NCBI RefSeq assembly: GCF_019320115.1
Contig: NC_089581.1
Location: forward strand, 12,929,152 to 12,993,151
Reading direction: 5' to 3'
Origin: Miscanthus floridulus
Lineage: Eukaryota; Streptophyta; Magnoliopsida; Poales; Poaceae
Length of the DNA stretch: 64,000 nucleotides
Each line of letters starts with the position of its first letter. Position 1 is the first letter of the stretch. This document shows positions 14,521 to 40,135 of the stretch, piece by piece. The notes under the pieces were generated by a model, which ran no database searches, was not told the DNA's origin, and was given only the letters and a program-made list of their open reading frames with translations. The position numbers and the translations under genes were made by a program.

Positions 14521-15117
14521 CGCCGACCAAGTTAAAGACGTCCATCCTCTCGCCGACCAAATAACGCTATATGTCGCCGACTAGACTTTTTGCCTAAAGC
14601 AAAGTCATGTTTTAATATTCTTCTAAATATTCTCTAATCTCTGTATATCGCCATAATGTTTCTCTGACCTGTTTCCTCTATGTTTGCTCTTCAAATGATT
14701 TTCCAAACCCCCGAACAATCATGTTGATGCTCGGATGCCTCCAGAGATGACCCTATCTCTGGCTCCTCCCTACACGTGCTATGGGCTCCGCGCTCTACGT
14801 TATGGGTGGTCGGCAGTGACTCCTTGGTCATGTCTGTTCCTCCTACATGTGCATGGGCTTCGCGCTCCGCATTATGGTTAATGGGTTAGCTAGGGATGGA
14901 GACTCAACTACACACTAACTGGTTGGACGGTTTATATTAAATATAAATACATCTTCGCTCCAACTGATCGCCGAGCTACATACACTATTTTTTTCTCTGG
15001 AGTTCATATATTTTTACATCATGTACTACCCGTTCTACATGTTTGTATTCTAGGGTCATCGTCTAGGTGATCGGACCACCTGGTGCTCGAACTTCTCCAC
15101 CGATCAACTGGTCGGAC

Positions 15118-18100
15118 TGATGGCGGGAAAACGGGCGGCTAACGACCCGCCTCCACGTCAGCAGAGACAAATTTAATTTTGGTGAATTTAGACGGGACAA
15201 ATATAAAAGAACAGGTAATGCGAGTCCATACTTCCATAATTCTTATATTTTCATAAAAATTATGTTAATTACATCTCCGAAGAGAAAACCCCTGATTAAG
15301 AGTTCCAACATGATTACATGATGAATAAAGATTACATCATATGGCTTCCTATTACAAACTACAAAAGAAAACAAATTCTTCAGTCTTGTAGTTGCCGATG
15401 GATGAATATGAATTTCTCGATGAGCTACTTCACTTTTTTAAATATATGAGTGGCGGATAGCTTGTTTGGGTCTTTTAGTTGAGTATGCATGTATTTAACT
15501 CATGCGTATTTTGAGTGTATATCATGTTATTTATTTGGACCATGACATAAGGCTAGGTCTTAATTACTAACCCGGCATATGATTTCTGCTTAGTTGATTG
15601 GACATAGATGCCTTGCATGCATTTTGACATATGCTAATGTCGACGGAGGGACATTAATTTACTTGGTTCATTATTATATCACGTATACATGGACGTGATT
15701 TATCTTAGAGACTAAATTTGATATAGTCTCGTGCGAGACCATGGATTAACATATTTTGACATATACGATGCACTCATCATATATATGGTGCGATATTTCA
15801 TTTGGGCTTAAGCTAGGACGACGTTTATTTTACTATGGCCGAGGTTGCGTCACCGGCCTCGGCCAGGGTCTATGTAATTATATATATTATTTCATCAAGG
15901 TCAGCGTGCGTACTAATAGCATGGTGTTTGACCGTGGATCAGCACGTGCAATCTCATTTATTTAAATTTGATTTGGTTTGGTTTTTGATTTATCAGCTAA
16001 TTAGGCACAATCATATATGAATGTTGTCTAACTGAGATGCAATATTTGACGTGCCCATATGGTGCACGGTATTTATAGAGAGTCTATGCTTGGCATGTAT
16101 GACTGGTTTCGGGAAACTATGACAAATATTATTTATTTTAGCCAGAACGCCGCAGCCAGTTAATTAGCATCTGGGTGATGGACGTGGCATGGACGCATGG
16201 GATTTGGCATGGAAGGACTAATTTTATTTGATTCATTTTTGTGACACAGCAGGATCTAGGTTCAAGGATGAAGACCACCTAAGCACATAAGGGGATATTA
16301 ATTCATTTATTAACTTTGGATAGTACGGCGACTATTAGGATGACGATCATTTGATTTTAATTTATTTTATCTTTACAAATTTATCAGGTATATGAATCAG
16401 CTTGGCACTTTTCTGTTCATGTGGCTTGTGCTATGGTTTGATGCCGAGACTTGCTAGCGGCGTGCAGATGTATGGACTAAATATGCAATGCATGGCTGGA
16501 TCGATATATAGGTATATGTGCACATATATATATATGCTGGCTAGTCAATCGATGACGCACTCCAGGCGCATGCAAGCTAGTTAGTTCACAAAGTATGGCT
16601 GTTCTAATATACATCACATGTACATGTAGACGCTGGTTAGCTACTTATGCAATGCAAAGAAGACAACTGTCTAGAGGACTGCATATACACATATACTGCA
16701 TATGGGCAGCGCTTTGCATGGAGTTTGCATCTATCTCTGTGTCTTTCCGAGCAAAGGTTCCTGTTGATTTGAACCCATGCACAGATTGACTGCAGAAGAT
16801 GAAGATCTTTGCATGTTTGAGGTTTTAGCTCTTGTTCTAGAGAACAATGCTCTTCCCTGTCCGGTTTGCACGACAAATCCGGCATGGGGTCTTGAGACAT
16901 CTCATAGCAACTTGCCCGATGGAGCCAAGCCGCATCTGAGGTCTTGATCTTGGAGACGATAGCTCTTGTTCACGAGAACAAGGCTCTTCCCTATCCAGTT
17001 TGCATAACAAATCTGGCTTAGGGCCTTGGATCATCTCATGGCAACTTGCTCAAGAGAGCAAGGTTGCGCACGAGGTCTTGATCATGGTGTTGATGAAGTT
17101 GTTGCCGGACGCCGCCGTGGAGCCGTGAAGATGAAGACGTGGAAGAGGATCAGCAGAACGCCATGAAACGCCGCTCACCTTCTTCGGGATGCCGGCGGAC
17201 GGACGACGCAGCGGCTTCTTGCGAGGGGCCGACGGACGGACGTAGCAGCTCCTTGCGAAGGGGCCGCTGATGTGTGCTTCGACGACGCCGGAGGGCAGCA
17301 GCACGACGGTGAACTTCCGGTGGGCGGTTAGCGCAGCCTGACGGCACTATGTGTTGAGTGATGCAGCGAGGCAGCCTGGAGGCGATATGCAGATGGAGCG
17401 GGGGCAGCCTGGAGGCGATATGCAGATGGAGCCGGGCTTCTCTCTACTACTGGCCATGTATTTATAGGCCTAAAGCAAGAGCAGTTCCGTGGTGTTTTGG
17501 CGCTCTTTCCTTTGATTAACCGGTGCCGGCGCCAAAGTTTGAATCAACGGGAGCGGAGATCGTGCAGTCGTGCGCGAGCGGTGTCGACCAGACGCAGCCC
17601 TGTTTGAACGTGTAAGGCGCGCAACTGTGAACTCTTGAACCCCTTGCCTGACAACTGGTTTTTTGGGCCGTTTATTTATTCTTTAATCAAAGTAATTATG
17701 GAGAACGTACAGTCGACATCTTCTTGTGTGGGCTGGGCCGCATGCACGTACGTGTGTTACGTATATGTGCTGGCTAGCTAGCTTGTCAATTGTGTACAGA
17801 TACGTATCGTATATACACACGTACGCTCATGGCCATAATTTAATTAACCCAACGTGTGTGCGTGTCCAAACGCATTTGCTTCTATATATATGTTTTTATT
17901 TCCTTGGAATGTAGATAAACAATATACATCTCTCCTCCTTTTGTGAATGAACAATATATGGTATACAAATATATACGACGGGTATATATTTGCATAGGCT
18001 TTCATCTTTGTCATGCGTCTCTTTTAGATATATTAATTTCATTCTTTTCAATTATGTTTTATTTTATGATTTCTGTATATGGCATATAACCATCTGAATT

Positions 18101-18169
18101 ATTTATTATTTTATCTCTCATGGCATAAATATTCACATGTATTTAGGTAGGCCAAAATTTGTGCCAACA
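15118..18169 (-). repeat. 3' LTR of element C
   Basis: It is bounded by TG...CA and matches 32185-35236 without indels. Short open frames in it also occur in the other LTR and are not genes. On the minus strand its transcript promoter would lie in this repeat. A minus-strand TATA-like box (CTATAAATACATGGCC, about 17455-17470) is the best core-promoter candidate. Confidence 0.95.
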
Positions 18170-19116: not shown

Positions 19117-22100
19117 ATGGAGACGAATGAGCCATCTCCTGGTTCATTTGAGAGGCTGCCGCTTTCTTGCGTGGCTCAATTTCACACATATATCCCAGCA
19201 TCTGGTGATGAGGCCAACCCCGTGATTATAGAAACTGAATTAAAGAAAGGCGAGAGGGACGGTAGTGCTCGTGGGTGGAGAAGGGTGTCAACTTTCCGTG
19301 GCCATTGTTTTTATCCCCATGCACCCTCGCCTCAATCTGTGCAAGCATACACCTTGGGTAATCGCATGATATCTCAGGGTTTTGGATGGGAATACCATAG
19401 CATGGAGTATGTTTTAACTCCTTCAGGGTATGTGGAATGGGGTACTGCAGTCCTAAACCATCACTGTACAAATCTCAAAGGAGATGGGGAAGGTACTGAT
19501 TATATCTATGGGGCCATATATTGTTCCTTGGGCCGTTATTCCATCTCGCTTTCATTATTCAGGTCTTTTTTAGAGAGGTGGAATCCAGAAACAAACACCT
19601 TTATATTCGCTGATGGTGAGCGTACAATAACTCTCTTAGATATGCTTCGGCTTGCGGGTTTACCTCTAGATGGAGAGTTTTATGAAGAATTTGTTCCTTC
19701 TCGGCATGAGCAAGACCCTTCTCTCCTATGTTATCCCAAATGTCTGTCTCAGCTTCTCAGGGTATGGGATAAATTGCAAGTTGGAGGAGAAGTTTCATTT
19801 CAAGAATGGTGTGATCATTTTCATAATACACCAAGAGGACCCCCTAATTCTGACGATGCTGATGCTTCGCTTACCTGCAAAGCAGCTTTCTTGGCACTTT
19901 GGCTTTGTAGTTTTGTTGTCGTTGGAGGAGGATCTCTGATTCGGCCAGGGGTGTTTGTGATGGCCTCTTGGATGGCTATGGGTCGTCGCTATGCTCTAGC
20001 ACAGCCAGCACTATGCTCATTGTACTATTCACTGAGACTGATCAGCACAAACCCAGTTGGTCCCTCTTATCTGAATAGGAGTTGGTCTGTTCATTATATC
20101 ATAGGCTGGATGGGGGCCTATTTCAAAAATATCTTTGGTGATAGAATGCGGGGTGCACACGTTCCAGCCTATAACCATGCCTTAAAGAAGCCGATGATGG
20201 CGAACATCATGTTCAGAATTCCCACACATTTTAATTCTGTAGGGGCATTTGATTTTTTATGTAAAGATGCCAACATTCTTTGGTCTCCCTACAAGCCAAA
20301 ATTCTCAGATCGAGCAAGGGCACCCCCACCAGCATGGATCCGCAACACATTTTATCTATCTCTCCGTCGTGGTATGCTTCCTTGGAGGCGGGCTGGACTA
20401 TGCATTGCAGAGCCATACCACCCGGATCGCGTGGCTCGTCAATTCAGACTTGACCAAGTGATCCCATTCCTTCCACTAGCAAGTTTATATACCGTAGAAG
20501 ATTTTGGAATCGCCCATGCTTATTGGAGGCACATTCTTCGTCCTGTGCAAGATAACTTGCCTCTTCTTCCGGATGACTCCATTACTGGCCAGTGCACAGT
20601 GCATTGGCTCAAGTGGTACAAGAAATTTTCAGAGCCCTTTAACTCCATTTTGGATGCCCTGAGCCATGGTATTGCTGTGGGTAAGGTACCATATCAAGAC
20701 AGGAAGAAGAGAGCAGTTGACAATGTTATTGTCAGTCGTCGGCTTTCGCACCATGATTTGTTTGTGGTGCATGAGGTACCTGAGCAACGCCGTGCTCAGC
20801 ATGCTGAGTTCATCAAATCAAAAGTAGAGGAATTCACTGGTCCGTGGAAAAAAGCACTATGCGACTTTCTGCGTTCGGGGACTCTTCCTTCCATCCGACC
20901 ATTTCAGGTATATGCGTTCCCCCTTTTTTTTTTTTTTTAAATAAAATATCAGCAAATTTAATATCTCATTTCATTCTTTCTTCACGAGTCATCATTTATT
21001 TTTAATAATCTGTACATTCATCTCTGCAGCCAAGACGCAGTTCCTATGTCGATCCTGCTGCTGGCTCTTCCTGTATGCCTATTTTAGTTGAAGGTCCACC
21101 AGCTCAAGAGAACCAAGTGAACAATCAGGTGGCGATAGAAAATCAAGCTGTCTTGCCGCCGGGCGGTAACCAAGGGCAACCATCTCCCAACCCTATCGTT
21201 CCTGATGCCAGTGCCGAGCCTCGAGCCAAACGGAAGCTTGATTTCGATAATGAGGATGGAGATTCCAACCCAGTCATTGGAGCTGCCATCATCGGAGAGA
21301 ACCAAGGGCAGCCATCCCTTGATATTATTGCTCCAGAAGCCTTTGTTAATATGAATGAGGATTTTAATCCAGACATTGGAGAGGTCCCTCTTGATCGTGC
21401 CCCCAACATTGCTGGTCATAATCAGTCTCCCAGTGATGATGATTATCTAGAAGATGAAAACGATGACAATGCAACTGCTGCAGGTTTTGGCATAATGAGA
21501 AGGGGAGGTAATTTTCAGCCTCTTCCATCTATCGTTACCACGAAACCCGGTGGGGACTTTTCTTTTCTTCTTTTTTTATAAAAGTCTCTGCAACATGATT
21601 CGGGGAGTCTTTTCTAGCATTGATTCACTTGATGTTTCTATATTCATGAATGTTTTTTAATAACTATTATATTTTGTTCATTTTTTTTTATATTCATATG
21701 TCATTCGGTTTTTGTTTAGGATTGGAGCAGCCGCCTGATCGTCCTTCCGCAAGCCAAGCGCAATTTCAGGGGACGCAAAGCATGGACGTTTCAGAGATTG
21801 AGGAAGTGTTCCTGACAGCTGCCCGCAAGGTGGTGAAAAAGGTCCTTGATGGATTGAGTGTCACTTCATTGAGAGAGTCTGAGCGTCGTGCCGCCCTGCA
21901 AAACACCTCAGCTAAACTTCCTGTGAACTTTACTAGCATTTCTGAGATCAAGGCCATGTTGGACAAGCTGATTGATCTTTCTGAACAACTGCAGAAAGCT
22001 CATTCCGAATTTGCAGCAAGCAGCTCAGGGCAAGTAGACCAAGCTGTTGATGAAGCCAAAAAGGAGCTTTCAGCTAGGGAACATGCCCTTCAGGTCGCAG

Positions 22101-22868: not shown

Positions 22869-25800
22869 TTACGCGTAGTAACGCTTTAAGAATTTTCCAT
22901 TTACCGGCGGTGGGCAATATTCCCCGTCCGGAGATATGATTCTGTAAGCGCCACTAGAGTAGACGTCTTTTACAATATATGGGCCTTCCCATTTAGGCTC
23001 GAATTTACTTTGCATCTTATGTGTGATGTTCATAGGCCGAATAACTGCGAGAACCAAATCCCCTTCTTTGAACGACCTCCTTTTTACACATTTATCGAAC
23101 GCTCGAGACATTCTAGCTTGGTATGCCTCCAAATTTTGCAACGCTTGAAGCCGTTTTTCTTCGAGATTATCTAGTTCTTTTAGGCGTAATTTCGCCGGTT
23201 CATCCTCATTGAGTTCTTCTCGGATAGCAACGCGTAAGGAGGCGATTTGCACCTCCAACGGTAAGACCGCCTCTCCTCCATATACAAGCGAGTAAGGCGT
23301 CATTTTCGTTGGCGTCCGGGTCGTGGTTCTATACGCCCACAAAGTTTCAAGCAATTTTTCATGCCAATGTCTCTTGTTTTGCGAGACAACCTTTTTAAGC
23401 AATTTGCATAGCACTTTATTGAATGCTTCCGCTTGACCGTTAGCAGATGGGTTATAGCCAGTAGAGAAATGGTGCTTAATTTTGAATTTGGCACACATTT
23501 TCTCTATTTGCCGATTCTTAAAATTTGTTCCATTATCGGATATGATTCGAGCTGGAACCCCAAACCGATATATAAGGTTCGTCCTTATAAAATTTTCCAC
23601 ATTTTCTGCTTTAACCTCTTTTAGTGCTATGGCTTCCGCCCACTTAGAGAAGTAGTCGGTCGCGGCAAGGATAAACCTGTGCCCCTTAGAGGATGGGGGA
23701 TTTATTGGCCCGACTACATCCATTCCCCACATTTCAAAGGGCCAAGACATGTTGGTTGGATGTAACGGTTCATGGGGTTGGTGTATAAAATTACCATGTA
23801 TTTGACATTCATGGCATTTCTTTGCGAATTCCATAGAATCAACAAACATTGTAGGCCAATAATAACCCAAATGTTTTAATTGGTAATGGAGCTTTGGTCC
23901 AGATTGGTGCGCGCCGCATACTCCAGAGTGAACTTCTTTCAAAGCTTCAATTATTTCACCACCGGCAAGGCAACGTAGCAAAATGCCATCGCAAGAGCGT
24001 CGATAGAGTGTATCATTTATACACGTATAGTTAATTGACCTCTTTCGGATCCTAGACCTTTGACTAGAATCCAAGGGCAAATATCCATGGAGCAAATAAT
24101 CCAGAAAAGGTGTTCTCCAATCACCCATCTCGATTTCACACGTATCTATAGTCATGGCCGAAGTAGATAATATATTCTCTTCCTCAGCAAGTACGGGAAG
24201 AACTCTTCGCTCCTCCACATGAACGTCCATAGTTTGACATGGATTTATTGACATGCTGGCAGCTAAGCTTGCCAATGCATCGGCTTTCTCATTTTGGCTT
24301 CTTACGACATGCTGAATTTTCAAATCAGCAAACCTAGTCATTAGTTCTTTTGCTTTCTTAAAATAAGGTACAAGCCCTTCTTTCTTTACTGTATATGTTC
24401 CCAACAATTGATTGACTATTAATTGGGAGTCTCCATATATAGAGAGTGTGTTTAAGCCCATATTGTGAGCTATCTCAAGCCCAATAATTAGCGCCTCATA
24501 TTCAGCAGCATTATTTGAGACCGCCGAAGTGAGTGTGAAAGAATATGGGAATATCGCCTCATCAGGTGTGACAAATACAACTCCTGCACCTGCTCCCGAC
24601 TTTCGGCAAGCGCCATCAAAATACATTTGCCACGTAGGATTAGATACCGTAGTGGTGAAGGCTTCCTCATCTGGTAGATCATCGTCGATGGGAAAGTCGT
24701 CAGGTATAGGATGTGCAGCTAGAAAATTAGCCAAAGCTTGACCTTTAACGGCTTTTTGTGGCACAAATACAATATCAAATTGTGAAAGGATCATCGCCCA
24801 CTTGGCCAATCTACCTGATAATGTCATTTTACTTAAAATATGTCGGAGTGGATCAGCTCTCGATACGAGATGCACGGTGTGTTCTAACATGTAATGACGG
24901 AGTTTTTGAGCTGCAAATACAAGTGCTAGGCATATTTTTTCTATATCCAGATAGTTGCACTCTGCCCCCAGCAGGGTGCGGCTTAAGTAATATAGTGAGA
25001 CCTCTTTCCCTTCATCATTGGTTTGTGCTAATAAAGCGCCTAATGAAGTTGGCATAGCTGCTGTATAGAGGATTAGTGGCCGCCCTTTAATTGGCGCGCA
25101 CAACACAGGAGGGTTCGTTAAATATTTCTTTATATCATCAAAAGCATTTTGACATGCTTGATCCCATTGGAACGGGACTCCTTTCTTCATGAGCCGAGAG
25201 AAAGGCTTGCACCTCCCGGATAAATTTGAGATGAATCTCCTAATATACGCTAAATGGCCTTGGAGGCTCTTTAATTCGTGCAAGTTTGTTGGTCGAGGCA
25301 TGTCGACAATTGTCTTTATTTTAGTAGGGTCGATCTCAACGCCATGTTTAGTGACCACGAAACCCAGGAATTTCCCTGAGGACACCCCGAAGGCACACTT
25401 CATAGGATTCATTTTCAATTTGTGCTTTCTAAGGCGTGTAAACACTTCTTCCAAGTGTTTTAAGTGATCTTTCTCGCGCTTAGACTTTACCACAATATCG
25501 TCTATATAGCACTCAACGATTTCATACAATAAGCCATCTAAAATAATGGCCATCGCCCGTTGATACGTGGCACCCGCATTTTTCAATCCAAAGGGCATGA
25601 CTTTATAACAGAATATGCCTTTAGGTGTACGAAATGCTGTTAACTCTTCATCTTCTGGCGACATTTTTATTTGATTGTAGCCAGAAAAGCCATCCATGAA
25701 GGAGAATATTTCATACCCCATAGTGGCGTCAATAAGGATTTCAGAGATCGGAATTGGAAACTCATCTTTTGGACATGCTTTGTTTAAATCTCTAAAATCA

Positions 25801-26222
25801 ACACACACACGTATCTTCCCATTTTTCTTTTTAACGGGTACAATACTAGACACCCATTTCGGGTATTTTACTTCTCGAATAAACCCGGCAGCAATGAGTT
25901 TATCGACCTCAGCTTCTATTTGCGGGAGAAGTTCAGGACGATATCTTCTTTGTCCTTGCTTCACCGGAGTGACATCCTTTCGGACGGCCAATTTATGTTC
26001 AGCCACCATTGGATCTAAACCTGGCATTTCTTCATAAGACCAAGCAAATATATCTTTATTTGCAGAAAGAAATTTATGGTATTCTTTCTTACTTTCTTTG
26101 GATAAACGTTTGCTAATGAAGATTGGACGGGGATCATCGTCCGTGCCAATATTAATTTCTTCCAACTCATCAGTAGTTGGTTGATTTCCGTCCTTCCATT
26201 TGTGGAGAGGCTTCAGTAGCAT
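22869..26222 (-). CDS. Pol ORF of element C: reverse transcriptase, two RNase H domains, integrase
   Basis: It encodes 1117 residues. RT spans about 100-300, with FRDLNKACPKDEFPIP and the catalytic YIDD at 239-242. A Ty3-type RNase H follows (about 384-455), but its first catalytic position reads YTAA, with A388 where D is expected. A second, archaeal-type RNase H at about 533-655 has D536, E574, D598 and D648 in place; a dual RNase H of this kind is characteristic of the Tat lineage. Integrase has the zinc finger H765, H772, C803, C806 and the catalytic triad D835, D896, E932. The C-terminus has the GDLVLAV...WEGPY module and no chromodomain. The enzymes copy the element RNA into DNA and insert it. 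The ORF is fully open, but it starts out of frame with the upstream Gag-protease ORF. The ATG used here is only the first one available, since the product is presumably made as a fusion. Confidence 0.93.
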   Translation of the reverse strand: MLLKPLHKWKDGNQPTTDELEEINIGTDDDPRPIFISKRLSKESKKEYHKFLSANKDIFAWSYEEMPGLDPMVAEHKLAVRKDVTPVKQGQRRYRPELLPQIEAEVDKLIAAGFIREVKYPKWVSSIVPVKKKNGKIRVCVDFRDLNKACPKDEFPIPISEILIDATMGYEIFSFMDGFSGYNQIKMSPEDEELTAFRTPKGIFCYKVMPFGLKNAGATYQRAMAIILDGLLYEIVECYIDDIVVKSKREKDHLKHLEEVFTRLRKHKLKMNPMKCAFGVSSGKFLGFVVTKHGVEIDPTKIKTIVDMPRPTNLHELKSLQGHLAYIRRFISNLSGRCKPFSRLMKKGVPFQWDQACQNAFDDIKKYLTNPPVLCAPIKGRPLILYTAAMPTSLGALLAQTNDEGKEVSLYYLSRTLLGAECNYLDIEKICLALVFAAQKLRHYMLEHTVHLVSRADPLRHILSKMTLSGRLAKWAMILSQFDIVFVPQKAVKGQALANFLAAHPIPDDFPIDDDLPDEEAFTTTVSNPTWQMYFDGACRKSGAGAGVVFVTPDEAIFPYSFTLTSAVSNNAAEYEALIIGLEIAHNMGLNTLSIYGDSQLIVNQLLGTYTVKKEGLVPYFKKAKELMTRFADLKIQHVVRSQNEKADALASLAASMSINPCQTMDVHVEERRVLPVLAEEENILSTSAMTIDTCEIEMGDWRTPFLDYLLHGYLPLDSSQRSRIRKRSINYTCINDTLYRRSCDGILLRCLAGGEIIEALKEVHSGVCGAHQSGPKLHYQLKHLGYYWPTMFVDSMEFAKKCHECQIHGNFIHQPHEPLHPTNMSWPFEMWGMDVVGPINPPSSKGHRFILAATDYFSKWAEAIALKEVKAENVENFIRTNLIYRFGVPARIISDNGTNFKNRQIEKMCAKFKIKHHFSTGYNPSANGQAEAFNKVLCKLLKKVVSQNKRHWHEKLLETLWAYRTTTRTPTKMTPYSLVYGGEAVLPLEVQIASLRVAIREELNEDEPAKLRLKELDNLEEKRLQALQNLEAYQARMSRAFDKCVKRRSFKEGDLVLAVIRPMNITHKMQSKFEPKWEGPYIVKDVYSSGAYRIISPDGEYCPPPVNGKFLKRYYA

Positions 26223-26820: not shown

Positions 26821-29800
26821 TTATATCTCCTGAAGGATCTTTGTACTTGATGCATTGATGGAGAGTAGATGGAATAACTTTATTTCATGTAGCCATGGGC
26901 GTCCAATGAGAGCATTATATGAGGTTGCTGCATCAATCACATAAAACTTTACATATGTCGTGAAACTTTCAAACTTTAAAACTAGACATATGGTACCCAA
27001 TGCTTCTTGGCCTGATTGATTGAAGCCATGGATGACAACATTCGAGTGACATAAATCTCCTTTGGAATATCCAATCTTTTTGAGAGTGCGCATGGGCAAC
27101 AAGTTTATGGCTGAACCACCATCAATCATTATACGATTAATAGGAAGATCGTCAATTTCACCAAGCATGAAAAGGGGCCTGTTATGTTTTGTATTCCCTA
27201 ATAACAGATCCTCATCACTGAAGGTAATACTTTGAGCTCGAGCTAATTTTACTTCTGCTTGTGAAACCTCAACCCTATAATCTTCAGGAAATGAAAGTGC
27301 GGTAATAAATGCTTTTCGTAAATCAGAAGAGAGACACAAAGCATCATACACAGACAACATTGCTGGTATTTTCTTCAAGTGCGAGATTACATCATATTTG
27401 ACCGACACATTGGGAACATGGTCAGTTACATCACTCGGAGTTACATTTGGGGGATTTCTTTGTTGAGGAGATGGTCTAGGCAGTTGACGGCCTGATCTAA
27501 GCTGAACTTCATCAACTTCTAATGTCTCTTCTTCAGGGAAGTGAAGAGACTCGTCATCATCATCCTCAAACATTCCGATGGGGAAGGCATCGTACTTTTC
27601 GAGGGGGTCGGCCTCGCGCTTCTTAATATTTTGGTAGAAGCGCGGGCCTTCGCCCTTTTCCATCATTCGTCGTAGAGCAAATCGTCTTGAGAGTTGCTGT
27701 CGACACTCTCCGGATCTTTGGGAACTTGATGGTCCTCCTTTTGGGGAGTGGATCCATCGAAGGAAAGTCTTGCCTTCATGCTGGCACTCAGCTTGCTGTT
27801 TTGGATATCCTGAGAAAGACACATTAACATGTTCAGGTTTTGATATCATATATTGATCATAACTTGGCCCTATTTTTGGAGCTGCACGACTCACCAAATC
27901 ATTTTGAAAGGTGGCGACATTTGACGTTGCCGTTTTCTTCCCTTTCGTCATGTCTTTCTGTTGATCAGCATCTAAGGTGCCTTCATCTATGAGCTTTTGT
28001 ATTAAGTTCTTGACCACAAAGCAATCTTTCAGTGTATGGCCTAGGATGCGATGGTAGTGGCAGAAATTAGGATCATCAAATTTAGAAGCTTCCTCGGGCC
28101 TCTTTGGTTTAGGGAGCTCAATGAGTCCTAATTCCCTCAATCCCATGAACAGATCATCCACTTCTTCAACAGGGAAGGAATATTTCTGATTTTGTCGCTC
28201 ACTAAGAGTTGGTCTCCTAGGAGCGGGTGCACCTTCTTTGTTTGGCATTCTTGTGGACGTACCCCCAGGTTGGAACTTTCGGGGTGCCATTGTTGCCTCC
28301 ATAGCTTGCACTTGTTTTGGCTTGGAGGAGGTGGGCTTATCTCGTGGGTTACTTTTGTCCAACGGTGCTTTATTGAATGTCCTTGGCGGACGAGACAGGT
28401 GATGCATATAATTTTCTATGTCTGTAGCCTTTGAAGACAACTCTTCAAAAGTTATTGGCCTCACACCTTGCAGGTGAATGGCCATGTCTGGACTCAAGTT
28501 GTTCATACACATACGAACCGCTTCGGGTTCGGTGATTGGCTGTGGGCAGTGGAGGCTTAAATTCCTCCATCTATTTATGAAGTCCGCAGCCTTCTCATTT
28601 GGCCTTTGCATAGTTTGAGTGAGCTCAGTTATTCCCACCATCCTTTGAGTGCTATAAAAGCGCTCTAAGAAGGCGTCCTGCATTTGTTCCCATGTGCGGA
28701 CTGAGCCTGGTGCCAACTTGCTATACCATGTGAAAGCTGGACCTGATAATGTTTGCACAAACTGACGTAGGAGGAGAGCTCCATTATGCGCTGTATCTTG
28801 GCACGCAGCGAGGAAATGAGCCACATGTTCATGTGGTGACCCAGTCCCATTGAACTTGCTGAATTGCGGCTGGCGATAATTGCTTGGAAATGGTATCATA
28901 TCTACTTCCGGCGGATAGGGCTTGACATACCCAGGGCGCATGGAGTAATGAGTTTGCATATATTGCGCTTTCACGCCCTCGGAAATCATCCTTTGTATGC
29001 TTTCAAGGGTAATTTCAGGTTGAGGGTGGCGATGAGGACCATCCTGATTTGCCGAAGGATGAGGAGGAGGATCATTCTGACTGGTCGATGCATTGGCCCC
29101 ATTTGTATTATTTCTGGCGTTGGTCACCTGCTCGCGGAGTGCGGCCAACTCTTCTTCTTTTTGCTGCAATGCAGCCATCATTTGATTCATTTGCTCTTGC
29201 ACGGATTGTCCATCATTGGTGGCAAGGACTTGTTCAGCCTCGCTAGGCTCACTCTCATTATGCGAAGAGTGTGAACCGATATCACTTGGGGCTTGTGGAT
29301 CTTCCCCGTTTGGTGGGTTTGGATCAGTTGAGCCTGCAGTATCCAATAATTCATTTTCAATATTAGAATGATCATTAAATAGGGGATTATAAGACCCTAC
29401 ATAGATCGCATGATTTTGTAAATTACCAGAACTTGTTTGGCTTCGAGTCACCGGACGATGACCCAATGGAATTTGGTTGCGAGGCTTCTTCCTTTTAAAG
29501 TGGGTTGAAGCTGAAGAAGCATCGCTTGTGTTGCAATCCTCTTCCTCAACACCCACCGGCATAGACGAAAATACCTCGAAACGATTACTCACAACCCTTT
29601 TATGAGGGGGTTGATAAGGCGTTGTTGTCGCACTCCTCAATCTCGGAGCGATTATCCTGATCTCATTTTGGGTGTCGCCAGTGGGTGTTGAAGATGTTTC
29701 CCCTTGCACCCTGCTAGAGGTAGAGTTTGTCGGGATTGCTAGCTCTCTTTCTTTTAAGCTAGCACGCTTTGCACGTACATTTGCAGCTTGCTTTGCATAT

Positions 29801-32085
29801 TTCTTTCGCCGTGAGTCCTTCTTTATGAACTCTTGGTACTCAGGTGATTTGGCTAGAGTCTCAGCACGACGCATGATCTCACCCTCAATATTATCCGAGG
29901 ATGCAGATACTCCAGGTAACAATTTCCTTAAATCTTGGCATATAGTTCTTTCTATGGACGCTTGGAAAGCTTGCCTTGCAGCATTTCGGATCCTGTGATA
30001 CTCCCTTTTTTGTTGGGCTAGGAGTGAATCACAAACGTGAGCCCTTTGTGCATCGGTCATTGAGTCAAGTTCATTGGAGAAGTCATCCCATGATTTAAGG
30101 ATGTTGTGTTGCTCTTGGCGGTGTCGCTTTGGGGACACAGAAGCTTGTGCAGAAGGTCGTGATAGCGCCACCTCTGATGATATGGGATCAGAGAGTGTTG
30201 CAGCAGGATCCACATATCCTCTCTTTATATCATTAAGGGAGAGGTGAATCCCCTGCCACCGAAGCTCATGCTTTGGCTGATCATAGCTGGGATTGCAGAC
30301 CATGGTGGGAATGAATTCCGGGGCCTCGGCCCGGAGTCGGCTCTTGGTCGATGAGTCACTCTCGGATGATGATGTAGACTCTACCATCATTATTTCCACC
30401 CTATCTTTAGGATTGCTTCTATCGTCATCACTTGTACTAGCATGGAAACCATGGTTGCGTAGCAACTGCTTATGGAGTTTTTGCTTTTCTTCGGTACCTT
30501 CCTTTTCAGAGAAAGCTTGACTCATAGCATGAGAAAAGGCTTCATTCCACATCCAGTTCTTTCGCTTTGCAACACCTGGGCAAGCTGGGCAAGCTGGGCA
30601 AGTGTGGATTCTTTTTGTCTGTTGATTCTCGATAAAACACAACTGTACGTGTTGATCTTCTATGTCTTCAATGTCACCCGAAGAGTCAGAGCTAGGGTTA
30701 GGAGACTGCACGAAATGAAGATTACAACCATACTCATTCTGCAACATCTCTCCGATCATGTATGGCACGACAACATCGGTGGATGCATATTTGATTTGGT
30801 CGTCTGTCAGAAGCTCATTGTCCCACTCTTTATAACGGAGTGCAGTACCCTTTCCTTCCACAGACACGCCCAACAACACTTGTGCGAGAGTCGCAAGGCT
30901 TGGCACATTGTCCCAATGCTTGCCTGGTATTATAAATGGCACCATGGCTTGCAGCTCTATCTTGTTAGAAAGTTCAACTTGGTGACCTTCCCGTAGCCGA
31001 TCCAGGTCATTAGCGATTGCAACGCCAACGAAAACATGGTTTTCGTCCGCAAGGAAACTTTTGAGATCATCGGGGATGATGCCGGCGTGGCCGACCTTGA
31101 AAAGAAGACACTTCTTGCCAACACATATCTGAATAAGGGCTATTTTCTTGCGGTCCCACTCAAACCACTCGGTATCTAAGCCAACTATGAGGGCCTTAGA
31201 CTCCTTACTACGGACATCTCGCAGGAAGTGCTCCACCGTTGTGGTTGAGGATGTGACCGTGACCAGGATTTCATTACCACCAACCATGAACATCTTTTCT
31301 TGGTCCATGGAGTGAGAGGGGTTGTTGTCAAGATTGGATGACAAATTATTTTTTATTACCCCGGCCTTTCCTTTGCTAATAGAAGCCTTTTCCTTGTTGC
31401 TAGGCTGTGGGTTTTGAGGAGAATCCCGCAGCACTATCCCCCTACTTGGAGGTGGAATATTTGTGGTAGGTGCGATCTTTGTTGGAGCTGCCCCCAGTAT
31501 GCCTGGAGCAAGCTTGGGTGGACAAGCCCCCAACTTGTTAATAGTTGGTGGCGTTGGTGTTGTCATTCCCCCTTTTGCTTTTGCAGTTGATGAGGAGGAT
31601 GCCATCAGTGAAGTCGACTTGGCAGGCGACGCCCTCTTGGTGCAGACAGGCCACTCCCCAAGTGTGGCGGGGCGGAAGCTCCGCGCCACCTTGGAGCTTG
31701 AGGGTTTGGATGAGCTAGCAGCCACAACATTGGTAGGTGCAGCCTTGTTGACAGGTGCGGCCTTGCGCCAGTTGGTGGCACGTTCATTAGAGGCCATCCT
31801 TGCCTTGGCAGCAACTCTCCTTGCCCGTCGCTTAGCAGCTTTGGACGTTACAGGAGTGAAGCCCTCCTCGGGCTTGGAGTCAACTTCTTGGTCTTGAGCA
31901 ACCACAGCTGGAGAGGCAGCTGTGGTGTTGAGCGAACTTGCGTTGTTGGAGACAGCAGGACCCATGGGCACATCGACCCAAAGGGAGCCAATGCGGATGG
32001 TGACGAACTCTTGCACACGTCCAGCCATACCTTCATATATAAGAAAACCATATATGAGTCTTCTTGAATGCAAATATCTATGCAT
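26821..32085 (-). CDS. Exonuclease-Gag-protease polyprotein of element C
   Basis: This is one open frame of 1754 codons. The real start may be the second ATG (residue 20, at 32028). Residues 40-260 are low-complexity and basic. Residues about 275-455 form a DEDDy 3'-5' exonuclease of the WRN-exonuclease/RNase D family: motif I GLDTEW (D304, E306), motif II VGVAIANDLDRL (D360), motif III YASTD (Y433, D437). Residues 500-880 are unrecognised, with a basic helical segment at about 690-780. The retrotransposon Gag domain is at about 1085-1185, a zinc-knuckle-like C-x2-H-x4-H-x4-C at 1342-1355, and retropepsin with D-G-G at 1655-1657 and ALIGRPWL near 1725. The frame is lost just after the protease (about 26883) by what looks like a one-base loss, giving an early stop at 26821. 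Gag builds the particle and protease cuts the polyprotein. The role of the exonuclease is unknown. Confidence 0.9.
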   Translation of the reverse strand: MHRYLHSRRLIYGFLIYEGMAGRVQEFVTIRIGSLWVDVPMGPAVSNNASSLNTTAASPAVVAQDQEVDSKPEEGFTPVTSKAAKRRARRVAAKARMASNERATNWRKAAPVNKAAPTNVVAASSSKPSSSKVARSFRPATLGEWPVCTKRASPAKSTSLMASSSSTAKAKGGMTTPTPPTINKLGACPPKLAPGILGAAPTKIAPTTNIPPPSRGIVLRDSPQNPQPSNKEKASISKGKAGVIKNNLSSNLDNNPSHSMDQEKMFMVGGNEILVTVTSSTTTVEHFLRDVRSKESKALIVGLDTEWFEWDRKKIALIQICVGKKCLLFKVGHAGIIPDDLKSFLADENHVFVGVAIANDLDRLREGHQVELSNKIELQAMVPFIIPGKHWDNVPSLATLAQVLLGVSVEGKGTALRYKEWDNELLTDDQIKYASTDVVVPYMIGEMLQNEYGCNLHFVQSPNPSSDSSGDIEDIEDQHVQLCFIENQQTKRIHTCPACPACPGVAKRKNWMWNEAFSHAMSQAFSEKEGTEEKQKLHKQLLRNHGFHASTSDDDRSNPKDRVEIMMVESTSSSESDSSTKSRLRAEAPEFIPTMVCNPSYDQPKHELRWQGIHLSLNDIKRGYVDPAATLSDPISSEVALSRPSAQASVSPKRHRQEQHNILKSWDDFSNELDSMTDAQRAHVCDSLLAQQKREYHRIRNAARQAFQASIERTICQDLRKLLPGVSASSDNIEGEIMRRAETLAKSPEYQEFIKKDSRRKKYAKQAANVRAKRASLKERELAIPTNSTSSRVQGETSSTPTGDTQNEIRIIAPRLRSATTTPYQPPHKRVVSNRFEVFSSMPVGVEEEDCNTSDASSASTHFKRKKPRNQIPLGHRPVTRSQTSSGNLQNHAIYVGSYNPLFNDHSNIENELLDTAGSTDPNPPNGEDPQAPSDIGSHSSHNESEPSEAEQVLATNDGQSVQEQMNQMMAALQQKEEELAALREQVTNARNNTNGANASTSQNDPPPHPSANQDGPHRHPQPEITLESIQRMISEGVKAQYMQTHYSMRPGYVKPYPPEVDMIPFPSNYRQPQFSKFNGTGSPHEHVAHFLAACQDTAHNGALLLRQFVQTLSGPAFTWYSKLAPGSVRTWEQMQDAFLERFYSTQRMVGITELTQTMQRPNEKAADFINRWRNLSLHCPQPITEPEAVRMCMNNLSPDMAIHLQGVRPITFEELSSKATDIENYMHHLSRPPRTFNKAPLDKSNPRDKPTSSKPKQVQAMEATMAPRKFQPGGTSTRMPNKEGAPAPRRPTLSERQNQKYSFPVEEVDDLFMGLRELGLIELPKPKRPEEASKFDDPNFCHYHRILGHTLKDCFVVKNLIQKLIDEGTLDADQQKDMTKGKKTATSNVATFQNDLVSRAAPKIGPSYDQYMISKPEHVNVSFSGYPKQQAECQHEGKTFLRWIHSPKGGPSSSQRSGECRQQLSRRFALRRMMEKGEGPRFYQNIKKREADPLEKYDAFPIGMFEDDDDESLHFPEEETLEVDEVQLRSGRQLPRPSPQQRNPPNVTPSDVTDHVPNVSVKYDVISHLKKIPAMLSVYDALCLSSDLRKAFITALSFPEDYRVEVSQAEVKLARAQSITFSDEDLLLGNTKHNRPLFMLGEIDDLPINRIMIDGGSAINLLPMRTLKKIGYSKGDLCHSNVVIHGFNQSGQEALGTICLVLKFESFTTYVKFYVIDAATSYNALIGRPWLHEIKLFHLLSINASSTKILQEI
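30720..31265 (-). other. DEDDy 3'-5' exonuclease domain within the polyprotein
   Basis: This is residues about 275-455 of the ORF at 26821-32085. Metal-binding D304, E306, D360 and D437 and the tyrosine Y433 that defines the DEDDy class are all present at normal spacing. The best family match by motif is the plant Werner-like exonuclease. It is part of the transposon ORF, not a separate gene: there is no start codon context or stop around it. Confidence 0.85.
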
Positions 32086-32161: not shown

Positions 32162-32179
32162 GTCCCACTGGGCGTGCCA
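32162..32179 (-). other. Primer-binding site of element C
   Basis: On the minus strand this reads TGGCACGCCCAGTGGGAC, five bases inside the 5' LTR. It differs from the site of element 1 by one base. The matching tRNA was not identified. Confidence 0.85.
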
Positions 32180-32184
32180 GAATC

Positions 32185-35100
32185 TGATGGCGGGAAAACG
32201 GGCGGCTAACGACCCGCCTCCACGTCAGCAGAGACAAATTTAATTTTGGTGAATTTAGACGGGACAAATATAAAAGAACAGGTAATGCGAGTCCATACTT
32301 CCATAATTCTTATATTTTCATAAAAATTATGTTAATTACATCTCCGAAGAGAAAACCCCTGATTAAGAGTTCCAACATGATTACATGATGAATAAAGATT
32401 ACATCATATGGCTTCCTATTACAAACTACAAAAGAAAACAAATTCTTCAGTCTTGTAGTTGCCGATGGATGAATATGAATTTCTCGATGAGCTACTTCAC
32501 TTTTTTAAATATATGAGTGGCGGATAGCTTGTTTGGGTCTTTTAGTTGAGTATGCATGTATTTAACTCATGCGTATTTTGAGTGTATATCATGTTATTTA
32601 TTTGGACCATGACATAAGGCTAGGTCTTAATTACTAACCCGGCATATGATTTCTGCTTAGTTGATTGGACATAGATGCCTTGCATGCATTTTGACATATG
32701 CTAATGTCGACGGAGGGACATTAATTTACTTGGTTCATTATTATATCACGTATACATGGACGTGATTTATCTTAGAGACTAAATTTGATATAGTCTCGTG
32801 CGAGACCATGGATTAACATATTTTGACATATACGATGCACTCATCATATATATGGTGCGATATTTCATTTGGGCTTAAGCTAGGACGACATTTATTTTAC
32901 TATGGCCGAGGTTGCGTCACCGGCCTCGGCCAGGGTCTATGTAATTATATATATTATTTCATCAAGGTCAGCGTGCGTACTAATAGCATGGTGTTTGACC
33001 GTGGATCAGCACGTGCAATCTCATTTATTTAAATTTGATTTGGTTTGGTTTTTGATTTATCAGCTAATTAGGCACAATCATATATGAATGTTGTCTAACT
33101 GAGATGCAATATTTGACGTGCCCATATGGTGCACGGTATTTATAGAGAGTCTATGCTTGGCATGTATGACTGGTTTCGGGAAACTATGACAAATATTATT
33201 TATTTTAGCCAGAACGCCGCAGCCAGTTAATTAGCATCTGGGTGATGGACGTGGCATGGACGCATGGGATTTGGCATGGAAGGACTAATTTTATTTGATT
33301 CATTTTTGTGACACAGCAGGATCTAGGTTCAAGGATGAAGACCACCTAAGCACATAAGGGGATATTAATTCATTTATTAACTTTGGATAGTACGGCGACT
33401 ATTAGGATGACGATCATTTGATTTTAATTTATTTTATCTTTACAAATTTATCAGGTATATGAATCAGCTTGGCACTTTTCTGTTCATGTGGCTTGTGCTA
33501 TGGTTTGATGCCGAGACTTGCTAGCGGCGTGCAGATGTATGGACTAAATATGCAATGCATGGCTGGATCGATATATAGGTATATGTGCACATATATATAT
33601 ATGCTGGCTAGTCAATCGATGACGCACTCCAGGCGCATGCAAGCTAGTTAGTTCACAAAGTATGGCTGTTCTAATATACATCACATGTACATGTAGACGC
33701 TGGTTAGCTACTTATGCAATGCAAAGAAGACAACTGTCTAGAGGACTGCATATACACATATACTGCATATGGGCAGCGCTTTGCATGGAGTTTGCATCTA
33801 TCTCTGTGTCTTTCCGAGCAAAGGTTCCTGTTGATTTGAACCCATGCACAGATTGACTGCAGAAGATGAAGATCTTTGCATGTTTGAGGTTTTAGCTCTT
33901 GTTCTAGAGAACAATGCTCTTCCCTGTCCGGTTTGCACGACAAATCCGGCATGGGGTCTTGAGACATCTCATAGCAACTTGCCCGATGGAGCCAAGCCGC
34001 ATCTGAGGTCTTGATCTTGGAGACGATAGCTCTTGTTCACGAGAACAAGGCTCTTCCCTATCCAGTTTGCATAACAAATCTGGCTTAGGGCCTTGGATCA
34101 TCTCATGGCAACTTGCTCAAGAGAGCAAGGTTGCGCACGAGGTCTTGATCATGGTGTTGATGAAGTTGTTGCCGGACGCCGCCGTGGAGCCGTGAAGATG
34201 AAGACGTGGAAGAGGATCAGCAGAACGCCATGAAACGCCGCTCACCTTCTTCGGGATGCCGGCGGACGGACGACGCAGCGGCTTCTTGCGAGGGGCCGAC
34301 GGACGGACGTAGCAGCTCCTTGCGAAGGGGCCGCTGATGTGTGCTTCGACGACGCCGGAGGGCAGCAGCACGACGGTGAACTTCCGGTGGGCGGTTAGCG
34401 CAGCCTGACGGCACTATGTGTTGAGTGATGCAGCGAGGCAGCCTGGAGGCGATATGCAGATGGAGCGGGGGCAGCCTGGAGGCGATATGCAGATGGAGCC
34501 GGGCTTCTCTCTACTACTGGCCATGTATTTATAGGCCTAAAGCAAGAGCAGTTCCGTGGTGTTTTGGCGCTCTTTCCTTTGATTAACCGGTGCCGGCGCC
34601 AAAGTTTGAATCAACGGGAGTGGAGATCGTGCAGTCGTGCGCGAGCGGTGTCGACCAGACGCAGCCCTGTTTGAACGTGTAAGGCGCGCAACTGTGAACT
34701 CTTGAACCCCTTGCCTGACAACTGGTTTTTTGGGCCGTTTATTTATTCTTTAATCAAAGTAATTATGGAGAACGTACAGTCGACATCTTCTTGTGTGGGC
34801 TGGGCCGCATGCACGTACGTGTGTTACGTATATGTGCTGGCTAGCTAGCTTGTCAATTGTGTACAGATACGTATCGTATATACACACGTACGCTCATGGC
34901 CATAATTTAATTAACCCAACGTGTGTGCGTGTCCAAACGCATTTGCTTCTATATATATGTTTTTATTTCCTTGGAATGTAGATAAACAATATACATCTCT
35001 CCTCCTTTTGTGAATGAACAATATATGGTATACAAATATATACGACGGGTATATATTTGCATAGGCTTTCATCTTTGTCATGCGTCTCTTTTAGATATAT

Positions 35101-35236
35101 TAATTTCATTCTTTTCAATTATGTTTTATTTTATGATTTCTGTATATGGCATATAACCATCTGAATTATTTATTATTTTATCTCTCATGGCATAAATATT
35201 CACATGTATTTAGGTAGGCCAAAATTTGTGCCAACA
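32185..35236 (-). repeat. 5' LTR of element C
   Basis: It is 3052 bp long, starts TGATGGCGGG and ends GTGCCAACA in plus-strand reading. It is the same as 15118-18169 except for two substitutions that I noticed, with no indels. Confidence 0.95.
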
Positions 35237-35439
35237 CGGACCGCTAGGTTCATGGACTTCATCGCCGAACAGTTGATCGGACTGTTCGCTGATCGCTTCT
35301 AGTCAATGCTCACTTCACCGCTGACCAGTTCACCAGACTATTCGTCGCTCATTCTTCATCATCAGCTTCGCCGGGTACTCCTCGGCGCTCGGTTTCTTCG
35401 TCCTCGAGGACAAAGTGGGCACACTTCACCGCATGGACG

Positions 35440-35827
35440 TTGTCAGCTACGTCGGTGCTAGGACCTCACCAGATTCGTCGGGAACTCCTCGGTGCTTGGA
35501 CATCGCCAGCTATGCCAGGGACTCCTCAGTGCTCGAATATCGCCAGCGACGCCGGGGACTCCTTGCTCCTCGGTGCTCGGTCATCGCCAGCGACGCTAGG
35601 GGCTCCTTGCTCCTCGGTGCTCGGACATCGCTAGGGATGTCGGGGACTCCTCGCTCCTCGGTGCTTGGACATCGCCAGCGATGCCGGGGACTCCTCGCCC
35701 CTCAGTGCTCGGACGTCGCCAACGATGCTGAGGACTCCTCACTCCTTGGTGCTTGGACATCGCCAGCGACGCCGGGGACTCCTCGCTCCTCGGTGCTCGG
35801 TCATCGCTAGCAACGTCGGGGACTCCT
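35440..35827 (+). repeat. 44-bp minisatellite, left half
   Basis: About nine imperfect copies of a 44-bp unit occur here, containing CATCGCCAGCGACGCCGGGG and ACTCCTCGCTCCTCGGTGCT. Because 44 is not a multiple of three, all three frames stay open over 132-bp super-periods, which explains the long ORFs seen here. It belongs to the 3' untranslated part of element B. The stretch from 35242 to 35440 is unremarkable internal sequence of the same element. Confidence 0.85.
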
Positions 35828-38800: not shown

Positions 38801-39736
38801 CGGCCCCCGGGTACATGTGGTTCCTGGCAAACTCAAGATACCTAGATAGTTGACTCGGTGATCAATACCTCACTTTAGCGGGTAAGTGAGGTTTATGTAA
38901 GGAATAAATCACCAGCTGGTTAGGAATCGATTCGAATCGCCATCGCTCCTAGATAGTGAGCACTTGACTTGAGTGACTTCATCGTAGTAATGTTGATGGA
39001 ACACTTGGACAGTTATAATGAATATGACATTATGGAAGTTGTTTAATGATCATTGGTTATCATTATCTGCTTAATCACATGTTTGCTCTAGTATAGGTGC
39101 AAATCTAGTCGACATGTTAATAACAATTAACTTGACAATAATGCTTTTGAAAAGGTTCTTGAAATGCTAAAAATGCTTCTTTTTGCAAATAAGTCAGCTA
39201 CCCTACTATAAAGCCTTCATAATCCTTGGTGTCACTTATTTTTGGTTATGTCGGGTAAGTCTAGCTGAGTACCTTCTCGTACTTAGGGTTTTATTCCCAC
39301 TTATTGCAGATGGGCAGATGTATTATGGCTACTGTATCAACTGCCTTTATCCTGCGATGGGTGATGCTTAGAACCATGGGCATGGTCATTCCTTATGTCT
39401 CGTCTGATGCTTTTGTTGGAGATGATCATTAGCTGGCACTGTAATTGAACTCCGTGTGAGTGTGTGTGGTTTTGAACAAATGGCTTTCGCTACTTTTATT
39501 CGAACTCGTTTTGTAATAACTATGTTTAAACTCTGATGTATCTGAGATGCAAACTTTTATGTAATATGTGATGGTGACCGCTAAACTTATTACGATCTTG
39601 GCTAGAATGGAAGTTGGTTTGAAATCCTTTGTGATTTCACGGACTACCGGGTTATACGGGCTTAAGTTTGCTAAATCGTCTGCTCTGGCGGATGATTTTC
39701 TTACTTAATTTTATATAATTGGTCGGTTCTGTTACA
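35828..39736. mobile_element. Solo LTR D of the same family as A, intact
   Basis: It is 3909 bp, TGTAACACCCTG...CTGTTACA, flanked by the perfect duplication CTCCT (35823-35827 and 39737-39741). No internal sequence is present, so it is a solo LTR left by recombination. A GC-rich block (about 36350-37210) gives overlapping ORFs on both strands that are composition artefacts. A short acidic reading at 38061-38330 (with EEDVEELSECPDHRPSSFER) has counterparts in A and B and is the only stretch that might once have coded. It inserted into the minisatellite of element B. Confidence 0.88.
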
Positions 39737-39741
39737 CTCCT

Positions 39742-40135
39742 CGCTCCTCAGAGCTCGGTCGTCGCCAGCGACGCCGGGGACTCCTTGCTCCTCGATGCTC
39801 GGACATCACCAGAAACGCCAGGGACTCCTCGCTACTCGGTGCTCTATCATCGCCAGCGACGTCGGGGACTCCTCGCTCCTTGGTGGTCGGTCATCTCCAG
39901 CGACGCCGGGGACTCCTCGCTCCTTGATGCTCGGTCATCGCCGGCGATGTCGGGTACTCCTCGCTCCTCAGTGCTCGATCATCGCCAGCGACGCCAGGGA
40001 CTCCTCGCTCCTCGGTGCTCGGTCGTCGCCAGCGACGCCGGGGACTCCTCGCTCCTCGGTGCTCGGACATCGCTAGCTACGCCGGGGACTCCTCAGTGCT
40101 CGGATCTTGCTATGTCTCATCGGTGTGCTATCAAG
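39742..40135 (+). repeat. 44-bp minisatellite, right half
   Basis: The array from 35440 continues here with about nine copies of the same unit after the solo LTR D. It was a single array before that insertion, as shown by the shared CTCCT at both junctions. Confidence 0.85.

What the first reader, a model, noticed from the sequence alone, without database searches (positions are those of the whole stretch)
30720..31265. Catalytically complete DEDDy 3'-5' exonuclease fused upstream of Gag in a recently active retrotransposon
Seen: one uninterrupted frame links a WRN/RNase D-like exonuclease (D304, E306, D360, D437, Y433) to a Gag domain, zinc knuckle and retropepsin. Known: Tat/Ogre elements often have an extra ORF of unknown function before gag, but retrotransposons normally bring only RNase H as a nuclease besides integrase. 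Inference: the element acquired a host Werner-like exonuclease. Conserved catalytic residues in a very young copy suggest selection to keep it. It might trim cDNA or RNA ends, process primer tails, or counter host defence. It may also mean that some grass proteins annotated as 3'-5' exonucleases are really transposon ORFs.
Basis: partly seen in the sequence, partly recalled or inferred. Interest (0 to 1): 0.9.

Follow-up and report, generated by a model that had tools for sequence, protein, structure and literature searches.

The report
Exonuclease captured by a plant retrotransposon
A large jumping element in a plant genome, probably a grass, carries in front of its coat protein an apparently intact DNA/RNA-trimming enzyme taken long ago from the plant and seemingly kept since; similar captures are known in rotifer elements and in wheat DNA transposons.

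Summary
A 20.1-kb LTR element on the minus strand (LTRs differ at 2 of 3053 aligned positions, TSD GTCCG) has one 1754-aa frame joining a WRN/RNase D-type DEDDy exonuclease (Pfam E 3.9e-15, all five catalytic residues) to Gag. Ten places in the same genome carry the whole domain; all ten keep D-E-D-Y-D without a stop in it, and five have a 3074-aa frame. In eight exo-less relatives of this genome, and in proteins from Eragrostis and Lolium, the N-terminal region runs into the Gag linker, so the domain is a delimited insert (about residues 235-582). Element exonucleases form one clade (97/98) among stand-alone exonucleases: one capture of a host gene. A diverged relative in another dataset (P0002) keeps the insert with 76% exonuclease identity. 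At the depth inferred from exo-less copies (dS near 0.75) this implies long purifying selection, but no exo+ relative's DNA was available. Copies within the genome show no constraint. Whether exo-less copies lost the domain is unresolved. Precedents: DEDDy ORF3 in rotifer LTR elements (PMC5408684); a 3'-5' exonuclease gene captured by wheat CACTA transposons (PMC4290129). New variant of a known kind; function inferred, not shown.

The parts
32185..35236 (-). 5' LTR (TG...CA)
   Evidence: 99.93% identical to the other LTR over 3053 aligned positions; ends checked
15118..18169 (-). 3' LTR
35237..35241 (-). target-site duplication GTCCG, 5' side
15113..15117 (-). target-site duplication GTCCG, 3' side
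32162..32179 (-). candidate primer-binding site TGGCACGCCCAGTGGGAC
   Evidence: read; primer tRNA not identified
26821..32085 (-). ORF of 1754 aa: N-terminal region, exonuclease, linker, Gag, knuckle, protease motif
31384..32085 (-). N-terminal region (residues 1-234), shared with exo-less relatives
30340..31383 (-). inserted segment (about residues 235-582): exonuclease plus host-type C-terminal tail
   Evidence: absent from 8 exo-less relatives read across this point, which have a short stretch of about 70-90 bases there instead; host homology over residues 261-555
30733..31233 (-). DEDDy 3'-5' exonuclease domain PF01612 (D304, E306, D360, Y433, D437)
30406..30675 (-). tail (about residues 471-560, CPACP...NWMWN...LLRNHGF) also found in stand-alone copies on C17
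28876..30339 (-). linker between insert and Gag (residues 583-1070), shared with exo-less relatives
28492..28761 (-). Gag domain PF03732
28021..28062 (-). knuckle-like motif CX2HX4HX4C
   Evidence: motif by eye
26890..27123 (-). retropepsin-like motifs DGGSAINLL and LIGRPWL
   Evidence: motif by eye
22869..26222 (-). pol ORF of 1117 aa: RT, RNase H, additional RNase H (RVT_3), integrase
19117..20940 (+). antisense ORF of 607 aa with plant mobile domain PF10536, between pol and 3' LTR

Best explanation
A plant (probably grass) LTR retrotransposon of Tat organisation captured, once, a stand-alone WRN-like 3'-5' exonuclease gene (catalytic domain plus its own C-terminal tail). The gene went in frame into the region upstream of Gag, inside a short duplicated stretch of the element. 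The domain has stayed intact through a deep split between element lineages and is still carried by young copies. Shown: fusion, insert boundaries, host-family origin, intact catalytic residues, recent insertions. Inferred: purifying selection (about 75% likely). Inferred mechanism (about 35% likely): as part of the Gag precursor it is carried into the virus-like particle and trims 3' ends of nucleic acid there (overhanging or non-templated cDNA ends, or primer and RNA ends) before integration.
For: Fusion frame and domain; WRN fold. Ten places with D-E-D-Y-D and no stop in the 246-codon stretch. At six independent sites a 5-bp TSD was read; seven LTR pairs differ by 1 to 7 positions, about 13-88 kyr at a recalled rate of 1.3e-8. 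In eight exo-less relatives the N-terminus runs into the linker. In P0002 and P0003 the left and right flanks of the insert resemble each other and the single exo-less copy (0 and 1 of 500 shuffles as high). Element exonucleases are one clade, 97/98, among stand-alone ones; the C14 gene pair lies between KIB1-4 beta-propeller genes, ordinary host genes. P0002 keeps the insert: exo 76%, N-terminus 60%, tail 61%, linker 72-77% identity. Window versus 8 exo-less loci: dS 0.67-0.83 (N-terminus, linker), dN/dS 0.03-0.09 in gag, 0.16-0.21 in the linker, 0.23-0.29 at the N-terminus. With a similar depth for P0002, 24% amino-acid change implies exo dN/dS near 0.2 (inference). Window-P0002 differences avoid host-invariant columns: 4 of 47 against 33 of 125, p 0.007.
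Against: No DNA of an exo+ relative was obtainable, so dN/dS of the domain between element lineages was not measured. Among the ten copies, changes in the 246-codon stretch are 6 nonsynonymous and 2 synonymous: no sign of constraint. The column test is not specific: window-P0003 is not significant (p 0.34) and 1 of 7 control pairs of stand-alone copies is (L023a/L025d, p 0.011). Most family gag places here lack the domain (37 of 46). P0002 ends at the start of Gag, so its fusion to the capsid itself is not seen. The best linker tree puts P0002 with exo-less copies (94/92), which would need a loss. Support for host nodes around the element clade is moderate (84-93 bootstrap, 61-92 SH-aLRT). No expression, particle or activity data.
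Confidence: 0.6

Rival explanations
1. Anti-silencing: the domain degrades small RNAs or silencing intermediates, or competes with host WRN-like exonucleases needed for post-transcriptional silencing, so the element escapes RNAi.
For: In Arabidopsis, WEX is reported to be required for PTGS, and induction of its homologue WEL1, which lacks the full DEDDY signature, is proposed to suppress silencing (passages in PMC8062710 and PMC8700014). The plant exonuclease RICE1 is among the fold matches (5v5f; its miRNA role is recalled). The capture came from a family of the same fold.
Against: The captured copy keeps all catalytic residues, so a dominant-negative role is not what the sequence suggests. 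The donor genes are not shown to be WEX orthologues. No small-RNA data.
Confidence: 0.3
2. Passenger: a host gene captured by the element, kept in frame by chance and spread by a recent burst, with no role.
For: Captured gene pieces in one or a few plant element copies are described (PMC7264820 passages), and wheat CACTA transposons captured a putative 3'-5' exonuclease gene (PMC4290129 passage). Copies within this genome show no constraint. Exo-less relatives multiplied without it.
Against: The intact domain also occurs in diverged P0002 (76%) and P0003 (91%), neither of which has a counterpart in the search of this genome. At the inferred dS near 0.75 an unselected 196-residue domain should have decayed, as stand-alone copies on C9 and C17 partly have.
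Confidence: 0.2
3. The exo-carrying form is ancestral to both the exo+ and the exo-less elements of this genome, and exo-less copies are later deletions, possibly by recombination between the duplicated flanks. (A question of history, not exclusive with the other explanations.)
For: The best linker tree places P0002 with exo-less copies, 94/92; holding exo+ together costs 9.8 log-likelihood units, p-AU 0.069. Flank duplications are seen in P0002 and P0003.
Against: Not significant at 0.05. No exonuclease remnant or second flank copy was seen in the 8 exo-less junctions read. Eragrostis and Lolium relatives lack the domain at the junction, so a gain is needed in either case.
Confidence: 0.45

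Closest known systems
Bdelloid rotifer Juno and Vesta LTR retrotransposons (and Terminons) with DEDDy exonuclease ORF3 (PMC5408684 passages; PMC6431247 and PMC5718144 passages)
   Same: LTR retroelements that acquired an RNase D-like DEDDy exonuclease; reported as at least two independent acquisitions, absent from the earliest branches
   Different: There it is a separate ORF3 and resembles a retroelement pool more than cellular genes; here it is fused in frame before Gag in a plant element and groups with stand-alone plant genes
Wheat CACTA DNA transposons (DTC_famc5 and DTC_famc6) with a captured putative 3'-5' exonuclease gene (PMC4290129 passage)
   Same: Grass transposable elements that captured and multiplied a 3'-5' exonuclease gene (3 and 7 copies)
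   Different: DNA transposons, not a Gag fusion; the wheat gene was not compared with ours, so whether it is the same gene family is unknown
Dada DNA transposons with a DEDDy DnaQ-like exonuclease domain (PMC3706591 passages)
   Same: DEDDy exonuclease inside a transposition protein, all four catalytic residues kept
   Different: DDE transposase of DNA transposons in Laccaria bicolor and Ectocarpus siliculosus
WRN / RNase D-like 3'-5' exonucleases, such as the human and mouse WRN exonuclease domain
   Same: Fold, D-E-D-Y-D residues, sequence similarity
   Different: No helicase; part of a retroelement polyprotein; 26-28% identity
Tat-lineage LTR retrotransposons (Ogre, Retand) with extra ORFs (PMC6317226, PMC11963269, PMC7264820; section 13 and passages of the first, passages of the others)
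   Same: Additional RNase H between RNase H and integrase, long LTRs, 5-bp TSD, long 3' region with an antisense extra ORF, here a plant mobile domain
   Different: The word exonuclease does not occur in the main texts of these three papers (supplements not seen)
Nidovirus ExoN (abstract start of PMC7968707 in the listing)
   Same: DEDD-type exonuclease associated with an unusually large RNA-based replicon
   Different: Different branch of the fold (recalled) and an RNA polymerase partner; no evidence here of proofreading

Membership tests
Tat lineage (Ogre/Retand) of Ty3/gypsy | Additional RNase H between RNase H and integrase | tested here: met
   RT_RNaseH 381-482, RVT_3 535-653, rve 828-925 of the pol ORF; criterion from PMC6317226 section 13
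Tat lineage (Ogre/Retand) of Ty3/gypsy | Placement in Tat by RT/INT phylogeny, and Ogre versus Retand | not tested
   no reference RT set at hand
Tat lineage (Ogre/Retand) of Ty3/gypsy | TSD of 4 or 5 bp, LTRs of several kb, extra ORF (usual, not exclusive) | tested here: met
   TSD 5 bp, LTRs about 3.05 kb, antisense PMD ORF
WRN/RNase D DEDDy exonucleases | Five catalytic residues D-E-D-Y-D in the three Exo motifs | tested here: met
   10 of 10 copies
WRN/RNase D DEDDy exonucleases | DnaQ-like fold | tested here: met
WRN/RNase D DEDDy exonucleases | Metal-dependent 3'-5' hydrolysis | not testable with these tools
   needs assay
Host gene captured by a retroelement | Donor gene family identifiable, with the element copies nested in it | tested here: met
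   element clade 97/98 among stand-alone sequences, wider group 90/92, rooted on L028 and L048; C-terminal tail shared; C14 genes lie among host genes
Host gene captured by a retroelement | Intron loss showing an RNA intermediate | tested here: inconclusive
   stand-alone relatives L019, L026 and L027 are single open frames, so capture from RNA or DNA cannot be told apart
Bdelloid DEDDy ORF3 elements | Exonuclease as a separate ORF3 | tested here: not met
   in-frame fusion upstream of Gag

The most novel reading that the evidence does not exclude
The exonuclease acts as a proofreading or 3'-end editing partner of reverse transcription inside the particle of an unusually long (20.1 kb) element, a retroelement counterpart of nidovirus ExoN, and was kept because long elements need it.
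Probability: 0.06. Interest if true: 0.92.

Novelty: new variant of a known kind. Interest (0 to 1): 0.6.

Why it matters
It is a traceable case of a plant LTR element taking a nucleic-acid-processing enzyme from its host and apparently keeping it for a long time in the Gag precursor, where it would enter the particle. It makes the function of accessory enzymes in retroelements testable: the donor family, the exo-less relatives and the insert boundaries are known. With the rotifer, Dada and wheat CACTA cases it suggests that 3'-5' exonucleases are captured by mobile elements again and again. It also warns that some predicted exonuclease proteins (P0002; likely P0003 and P0005) are transposon pieces.

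Tried and rejected
Selection within the genome: uninformative, because copies are too young (7 nonsynonymous and 3 synonymous differences in 988 codons over 8 places, counted up to residue 932 in L003, whose frame is interrupted after that; 6 and 2 in the 246-codon stretch over 10 places). Window versus five stand-alone copies gave dN/dS 0.18-0.33 at dS 0.95-1.87, near saturation and mixing host and element branches, so not used.

Host genes derived from the element (domestication): judged unlikely, because the element clade sits among stand-alone sequences with the wider WRN-like genes outside; wider support is moderate. The organisms of P0004, P0006 and P0007 are not named, and P0006 and P0007 are short pieces.

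Stand-alone copies being inside CACTA transposons, as in wheat: no CACTA-type terminus with the motifs CACTACAAGAAA or CACTA[CG]AAGAA in the nine stretches L019-L027; longer elements are not excluded. One frame beside an L021 copy has a sub-cut-off Transposase_32 match (E 0.004).

A flank duplication in the window copy itself: not detectable (481 of 500 shuffles as high); seen only in P0002 and P0003.

Viral contigs: 2 stretches matched a pattern, none was a relative. Retrosat2 ORF0 (LTRs about 3.2 kb, extra ORF before gag-pol) was considered; the word exonuclease does not occur in that text and its sequence was not compared. Searches for exonucleases in plant LTR elements: listings of an open-licence library. 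I opened 15 papers in all (passages, one section, or part 1 of 4), so most listed papers were not opened. Those opened gave the rotifer, Dada and wheat CACTA cases and a review naming DnaQ-like exonuclease as an accessory domain (PMC6338049, part 1 of 4); none of the passages described a plant LTR element with this domain.

Dropped rows: the 46 gag places are one row per place from the rows at 72% identity or more. Nine further rows were left out (eight second pieces of listed places and one separate fragment, C1:146500686). Rows at 44% identity or less were taken as other families. Some places may be duplicates or pieces of one element (C295 pair, C17:15.58/15.60 Mb, C5:41.93 Mb). One search scored 150 of 30766 candidates and did not list all matches. 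The exo+ copy at C9:7.0 Mb is not among its rows. One search also lists a 98-residue exonuclease piece at 100% near that copy (C9:7007649), not counted among the ten.

Full report
What is there. The element lies on the minus strand between two LTRs (32185-35236 and 15118-18169) that differ at 2 of 3053 aligned positions, with the 5-bp duplication GTCCG outside. A 1754-aa frame (26821-32085) holds an exonuclease domain (PF01612, E 3.9e-15, window 30733-31233) and a Gag domain (E 1.5e-11). A second frame (22869-26222) holds RT, RNase H, an additional RNase H and integrase. That order fits the Tat lineage by the criterion of PMC6317226 section 13; Ogre or Retand was not decided. Between pol and the 3' LTR is an antisense ORF with a plant mobile domain (E 4.3e-32).

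Copies. The own genome (2.68 Gb) has ten places, the window included, with 99-100% identity over the whole 246-aa query. There is one further 98-residue piece at 100% (C9:7007649), and the next best match is at 55%. All ten keep D-E-D-Y-D and have no stop in that stretch. Five have a 3074-aa frame; the window copy does not. Seven LTR pairs (window, C2, C11, C19:98, C295, C3, C8; the two C295 places share one TSD and count once) differ by 1 to 7 positions, C3 over 2321 compared positions. TSDs were read at six of these seven sites, not at C3. The C9 and C19:3.3 copies were not dated: no 3' LTR in the stretch fetched for the first, and the second is rearranged.

Origin. Of ten exo-less relatives fetched, eight can be read across the junction. 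Residues 1-234 are followed, after a stretch of about 70-90 bases, by residue about 583 onwards; L010 lacks the N-terminal part and L017 both. Of 46 family gag places, 9 have an exonuclease hit within 8 kb. The linker search gave 8 proteins (7986 candidates scored): P0001 and P0002 with PF01612, and six without it (P0008 and P0009 from Eragrostis curvula, P0010 and P0011 from Lolium multiflorum, P0012 and P0013 unnamed). Five of the six reach the junction; P0012 begins in the linker. The exonuclease searches gave 2 proteins of 834 candidates and 5 of 648. The insert matches stand-alone copies over residues 261-555, including a tail beyond the catalytic domain. The exonuclease tree puts the window, P0002, P0003 and P0005 in one clade (97/98) among stand-alone sequences. 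The intact C14 gene pair lies between KIB1-4 beta-propeller genes. So one capture of a host gene is the simplest account.

Age and selection. Window versus eight exo-less relatives: dS 0.67-0.83 in the N-terminus and linker, with dN/dS 0.23-0.29, 0.16-0.21 and 0.03-0.09 for N-terminus, linker and Gag. P0002 is about as far from the window or a little farther (linker 72% identity, against 69-73% for the nine exo-less copies with near-full linker coverage; summed branches about 0.45 against 0.34-0.37 for the nearest exo-less rows). Yet it keeps the insert and 76% exonuclease identity. From this I infer dN/dS near 0.2 for the domain; it was not measured. Window-P0002 changes avoid host-invariant columns (4 of 47 against 33 of 125, p 0.007; P0002-P0003 p 0.02), but window-P0003 does not (p 0.34) and 1 of 7 control pairs does (p 0.011). 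Copies within the genome show no constraint.

Gain or loss. The linker tree puts P0002 with exo-less copies (94/92), while one exo+ clade is not rejected (p-AU 0.069). Either the exo-less copies lost the domain or the tree is unresolved. In P0002 and P0003 the insert lies between two copies of a stretch that is single in exo-less elements; in the window copy this is no longer detectable.

Function. Being upstream of Gag in one frame, the domain should be carried into particles (inference). Trimming 3' ends of cDNA, primer or RNA is my preferred role; anti-silencing is close behind, given reports on the Arabidopsis WRN-like exonucleases WEX and WEL1 (passages). Neither is shown. Similar 3'-end processing roles have been suggested for the rotifer and Dada exonucleases (passages).

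Novelty. Rotifer Juno and Vesta elements carry DEDDy exonucleases as ORF3, and their authors report no significant departure from neutrality for the extra ORFs (passages of PMC5408684). Wheat CACTA transposons of two families captured a putative 3'-5' exonuclease gene (passage of PMC4290129). The case here differs in element type, in position and in being fused before Gag. I found no description of it, which cover an open-licence library only, and not every listed paper was opened.

Noticed in passing
19117-20940 (+): Antisense plant-mobile-domain ORF (PF10536, E 4.3e-32) between pol and the 3' LTR: a second extra ORF in the same element; next to it 21650-22363(+) has a weak match (DUF4686, below cut-off).
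   Followed up: partly
L019 (C14 about 4.05 Mb), L022 (C17 about 87.73 Mb): Stand-alone exonuclease copies sit in large inverted duplications (successive arms adding up to kilobases, 95-99% complementary), a possible source of hairpin RNA; at C14 the surrounding sequence also holds KIB1-4 beta-propeller frames on both sides.
   Followed up: partly
G000 C295, 38-106 kb: Two element copies 47 kb apart share the same TSD and show the same LTR differences: a duplicated segment or assembly duplication.
   Followed up: no
35434-35909 and 39656-40219: Two arrays of a 44-bp tandem repeat, one just outside the 5' LTR.
   Followed up: no
C5 and C6 of G000 (e.g. L026, L027): Many stand-alone WRN-like exonuclease-related open frames at 28-39% identity to the query; two examined relatives on C3 and C5 (L028, L048) have broken catalytic residues.
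   Followed up: partly
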